DNA from: Epilithonimonas xixisoli
Lineage (GTDB): Bacteria > Bacteroidota > Bacteroidia > Flavobacteriales > Weeksellaceae
Direction of reading: 5' to 3'
NCBI RefSeq assembly: GCF_004365655.1
Contig: NZ_SOEO01000002.1
Span: forward strand, 558,001-622,000
Length of the DNA: 64,000 nucleotides
The position numbers and the translations under genes were made by a program. The stretch's first letter is position 1. Each line of letters starts with the position of its first letter. Below, piece after piece: positions 13,013-58,720 of this stretch. The notes below the pieces were generated by a model. That model was not told the origin of the DNA, did no database searches, and was given only the letters and a program-made list of their open reading frames with translations.

Positions 13013-13105
13013 CCCGCAGCCCGACTTGAGTGGAAATCCTTTTTTGTGGCTGGAAAAGCGTGGGCAAAAAAGATTGGGAACGGAAGGCGGATAAAGCTGC
13101 CCAAA
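13013..13105 (+). ncRNA. Structured RNA element, family A copy 1
   Basis: Seen: helix P1 GCAGC/GCTGC (13016-13020 with 13096-13100); directly stacked P2 CCGACTT/AAGGCGG (13021-13027 with 13084-13090) with one A-G mismatch in the middle; a five-base bulge ATAAA between the 3' strands; an internal loop holding GTGGA and CGGA; and P3 (13035-13046 with 13065-13075) made of AATC(C)TTTTTTG. A second copy at 57723-57803 keeps P1, P2, the bulge length and both loops but has a different P3. A minus-strand relative lies at 22748-22836. It could belong to the Flavo-1 RNA motif reported from flavobacteria; I could not check. It is the only feature, apart from the hairpin at 13278, in the gap before lysA. 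Confidence 0.6.
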
Positions 13106-13277
13106 ATAAAAACCAATCCAAAAATTGCGAGATTTACAGATAAACTCTAATTTTGCGAAAAATTTTAACAACAAGCAATGCAATATTTTAAACAAAGCAA
13201 AATCGGAAAAAAGGGAGCTGTAAGGTTCTCTAAGGTTTGGAATGTATAATGAGTTGCGTGCATAAGATATCTATTGC

Positions 13278-13315
13278 GGCAGACTCTTTATATAAGAATC
13301 TGCCTTTTTATTTTT
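13278..13315 (+). terminator. Terminator-like hairpin directly upstream of lysA
   Basis: GGCAGA (13278-13283) pairs with TCTGCC (13299-13304), followed by TTTTTATTTTT. It ends 13 bases before the lysA ATG. It may end the transcript holding the RNA element upstream or work as an attenuator of lysA. No lysine-rich leader peptide and no known lysine riboswitch core was recognised. Confidence 0.55.
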
Positions 13316-13328
13316 AAAAATCTACCTT

Positions 13329-14528
13329 ATGACAAATCAGGATTTGCTGGCTATAGCAAAAGAATTCGGGACGCCCGTGTATGTTTATGACGTTAATTCC
13401 ATCAGCGAACAATATAAAAAGCTGACGTCTTCTTTCTCGAAGACCACGCGTTTTTTCTACGCTGCAAAGGCTTTGACCAATATCAATATCCTGAAGTACG
13501 TAGAAAAACTGGGCGCATCTTTGGACTGCGTTTCTATCAACGAGGTAAAATTGGGTCTGAAAGCTGGTTTCTCCAACGAAAGAATTCTATTCACGCCAAA
13601 CTGTGTTGACTTGGCTGAGATCGAGGAAGCAATGTCTCATAAAGTTCATATCAATATCGATAATATTTCGATTCTTGAACAATTCGGGAATAAATTCGGT
13701 GGTTCTTATCCGATTTTTGTGAGAATCAATCCACACATTTATGCTGGTGGAAATCATAAAATCTCGACCGGACATATCGATTCCAAATTCGGGATTTCGA
13801 TTCACCAAATGCGTCACATCGAACGTGTGATGAAATCTACCAATCTGAATGTGGAAGGTCTTCATATGCACACCGGAAGCGAGATCAAAGACCCAGATGT
13901 TTTCATCCAAGGTCTTGAGATTATGTTTGAATTGGCAGAACATTTCCCAAATTTGAAATATCTGGATATGGGAAGTGGCTTCAAAGTGCCTTATCAAGAA
14001 GGCGACATCGAAACGGATGTGAAATCTCTTGGTAAAAAAGTCAACGCATCCATCAAAAAATACGAGGAAGAATCTGGCAAGAAATTCCAGCTTTGGTTTG
14101 AGCCGGGGAAATTTTTGGTGAGTGACAGTGGACATTTCTTAGTAAAATCGAATGTCATAAAGCAAACCACAGCAACGGTTTTCGTAGGCGTGAATTCTGG
14201 TTTCAATCATTTGATTCGTCCGATGTTCTACGATTCTTATCACATTATTGAAAACTTATCCAATCCAAAAGGTGCGGAAAGAATTTATACGGTTGTCGGA
14301 AACATCTGTGAGACAGACACTTTCGCTTGGGACAGAAAAATAAATGAGGTAAGAGAAGGCGACGTTTTGGTTTTCAGAAATGCGGGCGCTTACGGTTTTG
14401 AGATGAGTTCTAATTTTAATTCAAGATTGAAACCTGCAGAAGTGATGTTTCTGGACGGAAAAGCGCACCTCATCAGAAAAAGAGATGAGTTTGAAGATCT
14501 ATTGAAAAATCAGATCGAGGTTTTGTAA
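13329..14528 (+). CDS. lysA: Diaminopimelate decarboxylase
   Basis: 399 residues of the fold-type III PLP decarboxylase family. The PLP lysine is K47 in FFYAAKAL; GLHMHTGSEI, the glycine-rich MGSGF, and CETDTFAWDR near residue 336 (active-site Cys) are all present. The last step of lysine synthesis: meso-diaminopimelate to L-lysine plus CO2, in the cytoplasm. Length is normal (about 400-420). It appears monocistronic: a terminator-like hairpin lies just upstream and the next gene encodes an unrelated secreted protein 64 bases on. Confidence 0.93.
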   Translation: MTNQDLLAIAKEFGTPVYVYDVNSISEQYKKLTSSFSKTTRFFYAAKALTNINILKYVEKLGASLDCVSINEVKLGLKAGFSNERILFTPNCVDLAEIEEAMSHKVHINIDNISILEQFGNKFGGSYPIFVRINPHIYAGGNHKISTGHIDSKFGISIHQMRHIERVMKSTNLNVEGLHMHTGSEIKDPDVFIQGLEIMFELAEHFPNLKYLDMGSGFKVPYQEGDIETDVKSLGKKVNASIKKYEEESGKKFQLWFEPGKFLVSDSGHFLVKSNVIKQTTATVFVGVNSGFNHLIRPMFYDSYHIIENLSNPKGAERIYTVVGNICETDTFAWDRKINEVREGDVLVFRNAGAYGFEMSSNFNSRLKPAEVMFLDGKAHLIRKRDEFEDLLKNQIEVL

Positions 14529-22627: not shown

Positions 22628-22747
22628 ATTATATTATTTTTTGTTAATTTTTATTTCCAAACACCCGAACTCTCAAACCCTAAAACTCTCAAACGTCACT
22701 TCGGGCGACTGCCAAAAGCCAAAGCTAAATCCCACGCTATTTTGTCA

Positions 22748-22836
22748 CCGGGCTATCCGCTACAATCTTTTGCTTTTCACGATTTGTTATCAGTTGACAC
22801 ATTTCCCAAGCAAAAGGATTTCCACTTCTATCCCTG
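22748..22836 (-). ncRNA. Structured RNA element, family relative (copy 3), upstream of htpG
   Basis: Read on the minus strand the element has helix GGG-A-TA / TA-G-CCC (one A-G mismatch), an internal loop with GAAGTGGA and GCGGA, and a long apical helix AATCCTTTTGCTT / AAGCAAAAGATT (+ strand 22808-22820 with 22764-22775). The order, spacing and the words GTGGAAATCC, GATTG and CGGA match copy 1 at 13013, while the helix pairs differ compensatorily. The outer GCAGC/GCTGC helix of family A is not present. It lies about 120 bases before the htpG start. The 22628-23107 gap holds this element, a palindromic repeat at 22915, and short repeats of 'AACTCTCAAAC' type near 22660-22695. Confidence 0.55.
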
Positions 22837-22914
22837 TCGCGTGCTTTCGCAATCAAACAACATTTCACAAAAAAAAGACCATCCAACAATTAATGACAAA
22901 TTGTCGCTTGCCGA

Positions 22915-57722: not shown

Positions 57723-57803
57723 TCCCGCAGCCCGGCTTGAGTGGACTCTTCGAGAACCTCAGAGTGACAAATTGGGAACGGAAGACGGAAATAGCTGCCC
57801 AAA
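57723..57803 (+). ncRNA. Structured RNA element, family A copy 2, in the 5' region of the DUF4349 gene
   Basis: P1 GCAGC/GCTGC (57727-57731 with 57794-57798), P2 CCGGCTT/AAGACGG (57732-57738 with 57782-57788), and the five-base bulge AAATA match copy 1 at 13013 in order and length. The P2 mismatch is G-A here and A-G there. The tip helix is quite different: ACTCT/AGAGT (57745-57749 with 57761-57765) within a dispersed repeat found again at 59195-59219. It ends about 32 bases before the next ATG. Apart from this element the 57491-57835 gap shows nothing recognisable. Confidence 0.6.
57744..57768 (+). repeat. Dispersed palindromic repeat, copy 1 (inside the RNA element)
   Basis: Shares the 11-base loop TCGAGAACCTC and flanking bases with the copy at 59195-59219. 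The stem is CTCT/AGAG here and GTCT/AGAC there, one compensatory change. It forms the apical hairpin of the family A element, where copy 1 of that element has an unrelated helix. Confidence 0.6.
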
Positions 57804-57835
57804 ATTTAAAATTTAATCTCTAAAAATAATCTATT

Positions 57836-58720
57836 ATGAAAACCAAAATCTTATCAATCAGTTTACTTACTTTACTTTTAATTGGATGTAAAAAGGGAGA
57901 ATACGCGGAATCTGCTTATGCAACTGCAGATAGCGTGGCGGTTGTTTCTGACAATGTTTCTGTGGCTGCGACTCAACAAATCGAAGGCAAACAATTTGTG
58001 AAAACGGCGGAAGTGGATATGGAAGTGAAGGATGTGTATGGCGCGACGATATCAATCGAGAAACATTTGATTTCTCTTGGTGGATTTGTGACGCGAAGCC
58101 GAATGGAAGCACAGACTTTGTCTGAAAACACTTATAATATTTCTGATGAATCATCGATGTTGATTAGGAAATTTCAGAATAAGAATAGAATGCAAGTGAG
58201 AGTTCCGACTGAGAAATTGGGTGATTTTTTGGATTTCATTAATGATAAAAAAGTGTTTTTGAATTCCAGAATTATTTCTGCTGAAGATATGACTGCAAAT
58301 ATCAAATTGTCTAAAATGGAAGCGGAAAGACAAGCGAAAACCAGTTCGAACATTTCTCAATTGAAAGTTGGAAAAGATAAAGTGAAACTTGATGATGAAA
58401 ATATGTCTCAAGCGAATTCTCAAAAATATTCTGATGAAATTCTGGTCGACCAACTGAAATATTCTACTGTAGATATTTACATCAAAGAACCAAGCACGAG
58501 TGTTGCGAAAATCCCGATTGTCAATACCAAAAATATTGATAACGAGTACAAATACAATTTCTTCTTTGATGTAAAAAATGCTTTTGTGGAAGGCTTTTAT
58601 CTGATTCAGCAGATTTTTGTTTTTCTAATTTCCATTTGGCCAATTGTTTTGCTTGGAGGTTTGGTGTTTTATTTTTGGAGAAGGAGAAAACCACTTGCTA
58701 AAACCGATTTTGAGAAGTAA
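57836..58720 (+). CDS. DUF4349 lipoprotein
   Basis: 294 residues: lipobox LIGC (Cys 18), the DUF4349 domain (FVKTAEVDMEVKDVYGATISIEKHLISLGGFVTRS, then RMQVRVPTEKLGDFLDFIND and a helical coiled stretch with LSKMEAERQAKTSSN), and a membrane helix near the C-terminus (IFVFLISIWPIVLLGGLVFYFW) followed by a basic tail RRRKP. DUF4349 proteins are envelope proteins of unknown function. Preceded by a structured RNA element and followed by the palindrome at 58727. Confidence 0.86.
   Translation: MKTKILSISLLTLLLIGCKKGEYAESAYATADSVAVVSDNVSVAATQQIEGKQFVKTAEVDMEVKDVYGATISIEKHLISLGGFVTRSRMEAQTLSENTYNISDESSMLIRKFQNKNRMQVRVPTEKLGDFLDFINDKKVFLNSRIISAEDMTANIKLSKMEAERQAKTSSNISQLKVGKDKVKLDDENMSQANSQKYSDEILVDQLKYSTVDIYIKEPSTSVAKIPIVNTKNIDNEYKYNFFFDVKNAFVEGFYLIQQIFVFLISIWPIVLLGGLVFYFWRRRKPLAKTDFEK

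What the first reader, a model, noticed from the sequence alone, without database searches (positions are those of the whole stretch)
13013..13105. Two + strand copies of a structured RNA element with a swapped purine-purine mismatch
Copies at 13013-13105 and 57723-57803 share helix P1 (GCAGC/GCTGC), helix P2 (CCGRCTT/AAGRCGG), a 5-base bulge and the loop words GTGGA and CGGA, yet their tips are unrelated. The central P2 mismatch is A-G in one copy and G-A in the other. A mismatch that keeps two purines but changes places is expected from selection on a non-canonical pair, not from neutral drift. The element is probably a non-coding or leader RNA. It may be a form of the Flavo-1 motif, but I cannot confirm that.
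Basis: partly seen in the sequence, partly recalled or inferred. Interest (0 to 1): 0.78.

Follow-up and report, generated by a model that had tools for sequence, protein, structure and literature searches.

The report
Dispersed hairpin repeat, Flavo-1 relative
The two sequences belong to a large family of short hairpin repeats scattered between the genes of this bacterium and its relatives; their stems stay paired and keep one special mismatch while their tips are swapped wholesale, and they look more like DNA repeats oriented by replication than like a gene-control RNA.

Summary
Copies at 13013-13105 and 57723-57808 share P1, P2, the RY/RY helix, the 5-base bulge and the loop words, with A•G in one and G•A in the other. 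They belong to a subfamily ("B") of Rfam Flavo-1 with about 98 places in this genome. Copy 1 scores 39.0 bits (cut-off 42), copy 2 has no Flavo-1 hit, a third window copy (22742-22842, -) scores 49.7. Covariation is strong. Among 180 distinct B copies the mismatch is A•G 85, G•A 88, G•G 4, A•A 1, other 2; it changes in place at two orthologous sites. A leader/sRNA reading is not supported for the family: orientation to genes is mixed and mostly antisense; copies are polarised by replication (56:19 of 75 sites in one complete genome; permutations 0, 0, 1 of 1000 in three). Tips are exchangeable: one tip has 41 copies in one genome, 12 or fewer in the other 22. Best reading: a REP-like DNA hairpin family with exchangeable caps. 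None of 13 Y1 transposase genes is flanked by it; the spreading enzyme and the acting strand are unknown.

The parts
13013..13105 (+). Copy 1, B subfamily, A•G mismatch, short tip (GTGGCTGGAAAAGC..)
   Evidence: Rfam RF01705 39.0 bits; R1 103 bits (copy 1 is in R1's own alignment)
13016..13020 (+). P1 5' strand GCAGC, pairs with 13096-13100 GCTGC
   Evidence: P1 98.8% paired over 50 copies; variants GCGCC/GGCGC, GCAAC/GTTGC, GCGTC/GACGC, GCGAC/GTCGC
13021..13027 (+). P2 5' strand CCG-A-CTT, pairs with 13084-13090 AAG-G-CGG; mismatch A13024•G13087
13030..13031 (+). RY helix GT, pairs with 13080-13081 AC, between two GA-rich internal loops
   Evidence: GC/GC 21, GT/AC 13, AC/GT 13, other 3 of 50
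13084..13090 (+). P2 3' strand AAG-G-CGG, then 5-base bulge 13091-13095
13096..13100 (+). P1 3' strand GCTGC
57723..57808 (+). Copy 2, B subfamily, G•A mismatch (G57735•A57785), tip CTCTTCGAGAACCTCAGAGTGACA
   Evidence: no Flavo-1 hit at E<=10; R1 62.1 bits (copy 2 is in R1's own alignment); a B element stands at this site in 16 of 17 genus genomes that have the downstream gene
22742..22842 (-). Third copy, subfamily C of Flavo-1, A•G
   Evidence: Rfam RF01705 49.7 bits; same site occupied in G015, G020, G003
13329..14528 (+). Context: PLP-dependent decarboxylase (lysA-type, name recalled) downstream of copy 1; copy 1 lies upstream of its conserved promoter-like and leader region
57836..58720 (+). 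Context: DUF4349 protein gene downstream of copy 2
   Evidence: PF14257

Best explanation
The two copies belong to a subfamily ('B') of the Flavo-1 structure. I read this as a dispersed, REP-like DNA hairpin repeat and not as a leader RNA or sRNA. SHOWN: about 98 B plus 63 A/C/D places in this genome; a shared architecture of P1, P2 with a central R•R mismatch, an RY/RY 2-bp helix between GA loops, an upper stem and a free tip; strong pairing covariation; the mismatch kept as A•G or G•A in nearly all copies; placement polarised by replication and by transcription; tips replaced at the same chromosomal site between species. INFERRED: the folded single-stranded DNA form is what is recognised, so arms and R•R pair are held by that recognition while the tip is free; copies spread or are converted among sites by a process that uses single-stranded DNA at forks or in transcription bubbles; the GA internal loops are the seams where modules are exchanged. 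UNKNOWN: the enzyme, and which of the two strands is the folded one.
For: Copy number and spread (R1 at E<=1e-8 finds 20-97 matches in each of 23 genus genomes, a few of them A-type, with only 97 candidates scored per genome). Covariation in own copies and in 81 distinct copies from named contigs (95.7% paired, 10 of 22 pairs double-changed, 0/500). Mismatch coupling: of 74 copies selected only for G on the left, the right partner is A in 69, G in 3, and 2 have no recognisable right arm; copies with left A have G in 92 of 92 with a right arm, 4 more lack one. Replication polarity: best two-segment split G015 15+/60- inside, 31+/13- outside (n=119); G022 26/9 and 14/45 (94 of 103 matches); G004 6/19 and 25/6 (56 of 65 matches); permutations 0, 0, 1 of 1000. 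With replichores set by eye from GC skew, element opposite the leading strand: on it = 56:19 over 75 sites (p 2e-5); divergent intergenics 17:6 (p 0.035), genes on leading 22:1. Tips: at the DUF4349 site flanks align while upper stem and tip differ among species; one tip has 41 copies in G020, 12 in G013, 9 in G001, one each in G000, G002, G015, G016 and none in 16 genomes, reversed control 0, and sits on arms of both mismatch states and several P1 and RY types. At the one site where arm state is informative, G015, G003 and G020 share G•A arms while only G020 has the new tip. G·T 17 versus A·C 12 in the 13 lower pairs of 180 copies, p 0.46. PMC9723704 (passages): Flavo-1 hits in F. psychrophilum lie indistinctly sense or antisense and many lie outside transcribed regions.
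Against: No mobilising gene found: none of 13 Y1-transposase genes in six genomes is flanked by the element; one lies about 1.4 kb from a B copy with a gene between. No clean empty site with exact junctions: where the window lacks a copy that G015 or G003 has, the intergenic DNA differs more widely, so gain and loss are not separated; one G015 site keeps a 3'-arm remnant, a loss. Every A, C or D site that could be compared was occupied, which fits slow mobility or a local function; the DUF4349 site is occupied in 16 of 17 genomes. Polarity is also tied to transcription (genes on lagging 11:10) and could come from selection against a stable hairpin in mRNA or exposed DNA. Of 23 parsed copies with the spreading tip, 6 have an imperfect RY helix and 1 an A-T at the mismatch. 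Over 18 pairs G·T is 37 versus A·C 21, though 17 of the G·T fall in one column of copies carrying inserts. No transcript data were available. GC skew is weak and came from 40 sampled stretches; dnaA does not lie at the switch points, and strands binned over the own genome's contigs show no clean pattern.
Confidence: 0.6

Rival explanations
1. A structured RNA: cis-acting leader or 3'-UTR element, or sRNA, bound by a protein through its GA loops and R•R pair, as the first reader and Rfam's type imply.
For: Rfam lists Flavo-1 as sRNA; the RNA minimum-energy fold of copy 1 equals the covariation structure; copy 2 lies sense and upstream of a DUF4349 gene in 16 of 17 orthologs; some Flavo-1 hits coincide with 5' transcribed regions in F. 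psychrophilum (passages).
Against: Orientation to genes is mixed and antisense between codirectional genes (52:21 in own genome; 32:12 in G015); replication polarity; G·T not clearly commoner than A·C; RNA folds no more stable than shuffles. Flanking genes were not annotated as a set, so a shared gene class is not excluded.
Confidence: 0.2
2. A REP or REPIN mobilised by an IS200-like Y1 (RAYT) transposase of the host.
For: Copy number, intergenic hairpin, paired changes that keep stems, strand polarity like lagging-strand-targeting elements (PMC6006769, passages), which also reports atypical flanking structures for Bacteroidetes subclass 2.6.
Against: Two own Y1 genes read in full carry hairpins of their own: AACCCCTTCAGAGTTT on both sides in L034, GCGCGAGC/GCTCGTGC type in L033; palindromes near L031 and L032 show only as chance hits of miRNA models. 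No Flavo-1 (Rfam; at its cut-off for nine of the loci) or R1 hit flanks 13 Y1 loci within 1.5 kb except the L034 neighbour. No GT[AG]G foot at the stem base.
Confidence: 0.1
3. A chromosomal site with a host function in replication or segregation (an oriented signal), kept by selection in one direction relative to the fork.
For: Polarity in three complete genomes; presence in 23 of 23 genus genomes; strong structural conservation.
Against: Copy number varies from 20 to at least 97 at one threshold; B sites differ between close species; tips and subtypes turn over.
Confidence: 0.1

Closest known systems
Rfam RF01705 Flavo-1 (Weinberg et al. 2010, PMC2864571; passages seen)
   Same: Same layout: basal stem, A•G mismatch, 2-bp helix between two GA loops, GGAAAUCCUUUU..AAAAGAUU upper stem, free tip (model alignments).
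   Different: B has its own P1 (GCAGC/GCTGC and variants), one extra G in the 3' loop (GGGA), a shifted lower loop, and A•G or G•A, whereas the mismatch is A•G in all 49 A/D copies aligned. Copy 1 is under the cut-off and copy 2 has no hit.
REP/REPIN repeats with RAYT transposases (PMC2817692, PMC3733652, PMC6006769; passages seen)
   Same: High-copy intergenic hairpins with compensated stem changes.
   Different: No GT[AG]G foot, about 70-140 nt, fixed internal mismatches, not flanking any of 13 Y1 genes; two own RAYT-like genes have other repeats.
IS200/IS605-family ends
   Same: Imperfect hairpins and lagging-strand-related polarity (PMC6006769, passages).
   Different: No transposase-bearing form with Flavo-1 ends was found among the Y1 loci examined.
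Integron attC sites (recalled, not tested by search)
   Same: Structure-conserved hairpin with mismatches and a variable terminal part.
   Different: RYYYAAC/GTTRRRY ends not seen in the B copies read; integrase genes and cassette arrays were not searched for.

Membership tests
Rfam Flavo-1 (RF01705) | Score at or above the gathering cut-off of 42 bits | tested here: not met
   Copy 1 39.0, copy 2 no hit at E<=10. 6 of the 50 own B copies read do exceed 42 bits, and the C copy in the window scores 49.7. So: a related subfamily, not filed as a plain member.
Rfam Flavo-1 (RF01705) | Consensus secondary structure with conserved GGA/GA loops and A•G | tested here: met
   Alignment of copy 1 to the model; B covariation. 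B adds the G•A state.
Rfam Flavo-1 as an sRNA | Expressed as a small RNA | not testable with these tools
   No transcript data; PMC9723704 passages report hits in both orientations and many outside transcripts.
REP with RAYT | RAYT gene flanked by the repeat | tested here: not met
   No Y1 gene flanked in 13 loci of six genomes; one own Y1 gene has a B copy about 1.4 kb away with a gene between.
REP with RAYT | GT[AG]G tetranucleotide at the stem foot | tested here: not met
   The 50 B copies read have GC-rich P1 strands at the foot; GTGG occurs only inside, where GT varies with GC and AC.
REP-like repeat in the wide sense | High-copy dispersed intergenic imperfect palindrome with compensatory changes | tested here: met
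Leader / cis-regulatory RNA | Constant orientation and position before a set of genes | tested here: not met
   Own contexts -E- 52, +E+ 21, -E+ 22, +E- 17, one at a contig end, of 113; gene classes not examined
Integron attC | Nearby integrase and cassette array | not tested
   No integrase search was run

The most novel reading that the evidence does not exclude
Flavo-1 is not an RNA family but a replication-polarised single-stranded-DNA hairpin element built of concentric, separately exchangeable modules: a recognised base (P1, P2 with a swappable purine-purine pair, RY helix, GA loops) and a cap that an unknown ssDNA-processing enzyme cuts and replaces at the GGA loops, so that one cap can sweep through dozens of existing sites in one species.
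Probability: 0.22. Interest if true: 0.82.

Novelty: new variant of a known kind. Interest (0 to 1): 0.56.

Why it matters
Rfam and a 2022 review (PMC9029176, passages) list Flavo-1 among small RNAs, with no function given in the review's table. If most copies are DNA repeats oriented by replication, the annotation of dozens to over a hundred 'sRNAs' per genome in this group changes meaning, and a tractable system appears for studying how hairpin repeats spread and exchange tips. A purine-purine mismatch that stands in either order yet very rarely becomes A•A, G•G or a Watson-Crick pair is a sharp handle for finding the protein that reads it.

Tried and rejected
RAYT linkage: expected Y1 genes flanked by Flavo-1; two read in full carry other repeats and none of 13 is flanked by Flavo-1. 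The first orientation table took loci L001-L030 as already turned to the element's strand; they were not, and one search corrects it. Replichores of the own genome could not be set from 3-kb pieces, and own strand counts by 150-kb bins show no clean pattern, so complete relatives were used. Exact insertion junctions and target duplications were looked for and not found. A first tally of A-type pairs failed on a wrong pattern and was redone. Folding energies gave no support. Rfam hits of other families on copy 2 (L2-Alphaproteobacteria E 0.093; Yar_1 E 1.1) are chance-level. attC was considered from memory only. Paper searches listed no paper that from title, abstract start or the passages I read treats Flavo-1 as a DNA repeat or reports the swap or the tip exchange; six papers were opened, passages only, and the library is open-access only.

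Rows dropped: of 116 rows (150 of 968 candidates scored), 112 were read and typed; of the 4 not fetched, three reappear. Of 98 places assigned to B, 50 were read in full; the other 48 rest on R1's score and on not being a known A/C/D place. L113 was left out of alignment A2 as broken, and the 13 C copies were not aligned. One search printed 150 of 168 rows, so G022 and G004 counts use 94 of 103 and 56 of 65. For context 60 of 104 G015 sites outside 0.5-0.9 Mb (best-scoring first) were fetched, plus all 15 inside. One search parsed 23 of 36 printed copies. G015's site 721539 had no matching flanks in the window.

Full report
What is in the window. Rfam places only 22742-22842 (-) above its Flavo-1 cut-off (49.7 bits). 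Copy 1 reaches 39.0 of 42 bits over the whole model, copy 2 has no Flavo-1 match at E<=10. Searching the whole genome with RF01705 gives 116 rows at E<=10, 64 over the cut-off, with 150 of 968 candidates scored.

Subfamilies. I read 112 of these 116 places plus copy 2. By simple patterns they fall into A (AGCCCCGATNGNARYGGA..RYGGANAGCGGG), B (GCAGC-CCGRCTTGARYGGA..GGGARYGGAAGRCGG-NNNNN-GCTGC), C (AGGGATAGNARYGGA..AGCCCG) and D (A with a CCCACAGC tip): 38, 50, 13 and 12 copies. These labels are mine. A covariance model of the 50 B copies (R1; both window copies are in it) gives 124 rows at E<=0.01 in the own genome; after removing A-type places I count 98 B and 63 A/C/D places, 48 of the B places by score alone. 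At E<=1e-8, R1 finds 20-97 matches in each of the 23 genomes of the genus, some of them A-type and with 97 candidates scored per genome, and none in 16 genomes outside it; RF01705 at E<=1e-9 hits 26 of 39, three of them outside the genus. B is not confined to the genus by name: an exact scan for the left arm with G at the mismatch found 74 stretches in named Epilithonimonas, Chryseobacterium and related records. Contig lengths equal to records (e.g. 1083768) suggest that G003 is E. lactis and that the genus is Epilithonimonas; that is an inference.

Pairing. Fifty own B copies pair in 99.1% of cells, with double-sided change at 9 of 22 pairs; 0/500 shuffles reach four of the five measures, 8/500 the number of further pair types. 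Eighty-one distinct copies from the named contigs give 95.7% and 10 of 22, 0/500 on all five, on an alignment fitted to the model. P1 appears as GCAGC/GCTGC, GCGCC/GGCGC, GCAAC/GTTGC, GCGTC/GACGC and GCGAC/GTCGC. The 2-bp helix is GC/GC 21, GT/AC 13, AC/GT 13 and other 3 of 50.

The mismatch. Own copies: A•G 35, G•A 15, like pairs 0. Of 74 copies chosen only for G on the left, the right partner is A in 69, G in 3, and 2 have no recognisable right arm; copies with left A have G in 92 of 92 that have a right arm, and 4 more lack one. Over 180 distinct copies: A•G 85, G•A 88, G•G 4, A•A 1, other 2. Seventy-two of these (69 G•A, 3 G•G) come from the scan for left G, so the ratio of the two states means nothing; the coupling does. 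One like-pair copy (L243) mismatches at several positions at once and looks like a recombinant of two subtypes. Among 23 further parsed copies with one tip, 18 are A•G, 4 G•A and 1 A-T. In A and D the pair is A•G in 49 of 49. At orthologous sites the state changes in place: own is G•A while the other 15 occupied genomes read by eye as A•G at the DUF4349 site, and own and G020 are A•G versus G015 G•A at the site of L054. Caution: subtypes are shared among copies, so the number of independent swaps is unknown and the shuffle controls overstate it. The data also read as C•T/T•C on the other strand.

Tips. At the DUF4349 site R1 finds an element in 16 of 17 genomes with the gene, one of them weak (29.8 bits). 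Flanks align, yet upper stem and tip differ (GGAGCTC.., AAATCC.., TCCCGAT.., CTCTTCGAG..). At copy 1's site, upstream of the decarboxylase gene, R1 finds an element in 9 of 22 genomes whose upstream DNA is long enough; one more (L182) shows a broken one by eye. One tip, TCCCGATNTAAAATCGGGA with its GGA edges and up to 2 mismatches, has 41 copies in G020, 12 in G013, 9 in G001, one each in G000, G002, G015 and G016 and none in 16 genomes, with 0 for the reversed control. It sits on arms of both mismatch states and several RY and P1 types; 6 of 23 parsed copies have an imperfect RY helix. At four sites G020 carries it where G015 or G003 carry other tips. At G015:C1:596292 / G003:C6:573414 / G020:C1 about 1350314 all three keep G•A arms while only G020 has the new tip: arms inherited, tip replaced. 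This is the one site where the arm state is informative. Ordinary conversion with short flanking homology could do this; so could a cut at the GGA loops.

Placement. Contexts of 113 own copies, element read as +: both neighbours on the other strand 52, both on the same strand 21 (p 0.0004), divergent 22, convergent 17, one at a contig end; genes were called by a simple ORF rule. In three single-contig genomes strands split into two large segments: G015 15+/60- and 31+/13-; G022 26/9 and 14/45; G004 6/19 and 25/6; permutations that re-search the split reach this in 0, 0 and 1 of 1000. In G015 the split roughly follows the sign of GC skew in 40 sampled stretches. Taking 0.58-3.0 Mb, set by eye from that skew, as one replichore, 75 sites give element opposite the leading strand: on it 56:19; genes on leading 22:1, genes on lagging 11:10, divergent 17:6 (p 0.035), convergent 4:2, unclassified 2:0. 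Either the complement is the strand that inserts, or the better-folding strand is kept out of exposed DNA and mRNA: as DNA, copy 1's reader strand folds at -13.5 and its complement at -9.8 kcal/mol; copy 2 at -8.9 and -6.5.

Is it RNA? G·T 17 versus A·C 12 in the 13 lower pairs (p 0.46) shows no clear wobble preference; over 18 pairs it is 37 versus 21, but 17 of these G·T lie in one column of copies with inserts. RNA folds are not more stable than shuffles. PMC9723704 (passages) found Flavo-1 indistinctly sense or antisense and often outside transcripts. None of this excludes a function of single copies, e.g. at the DUF4349 site.

Mobility. Three B sites of G015 (655810, 672514, 685840) have no element at the matching place in the window, but the intergenic DNA there differs too widely to read a junction; at the place matching G003:C6:554144-554255, G015 keeps only a 3'-arm remnant, a loss. 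Every A, C or D site that could be compared was occupied. Y1 transposase genes: 4 in the own genome (one under Pfam's cut-off) and 9 loci in five more genomes (two broken by stops; a sixth genome had none); none is flanked by the element, and one own gene has a B copy about 1.4 kb away with a gene between. Two own RAYT-like genes carry other repeats.

Verdict. The family is Flavo-1 in the wide sense, as a subfamily that Rfam's cut-off mostly misses. The RNA reading is not supported for the family as a whole. I favour a REP-like DNA hairpin with exchangeable caps, with the enzyme unknown.

Noticed in passing
window 13178-13249 and 13278-13303: Upstream of the decarboxylase gene at 13329 lies a short ORF (MQYFKQSKIGKKGAVRFSKVWNV, 5 Lys of 23) followed by a terminator-like hairpin and T run; by eye alike in most of the 22 upstream regions printed (one cut short). 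A leader-peptide attenuator candidate (fold z -2.82).
   Followed up: partly
L034:1429-1461 and 2072-2104: A 201-aa Y1/RAYT-like gene (1462-2067; under Pfam's Y1_Tnp cut-off) is flanked on both sides by a perfect hairpin AACCCCTTCAGAGTT(T)/(A)AACTCTGAAGGGGTT.
   Followed up: partly
L033:1060-1270 and 1790-1930: A 183-aa Y1 gene with SHIH, WQ and YIHQNP motifs, resembling subclass 2.6 of PMC6006769, is flanked by GCGCGAGC/GCTCGTGC-type hairpins.
   Followed up: partly
L167, L169, L175, L280, L285, L345, L352: Second repeats (CCCTTCGACAAGCTCAGGATAAACTACAG and CACTTCGTTAGGTTTG types) sit inside B elements at or next to the internal loops, as if these loops were insertion spots.
   Followed up: no
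G004, G015, G022: dnaA lies near the middle of one polarity segment in all three single-contig genomes, not at a switch point, so the origin may be far from dnaA.
   Followed up: no
L031:1126-1319 and L032:1245-1435: Stretches next to Y1 genes hit eukaryotic miRNA models on both strands, below their cut-offs, probably because they are palindromes.
   Followed up: no
G020 (41 places): A burst of one tip sequence inside repeat copies of one genome.
   Followed up: yes
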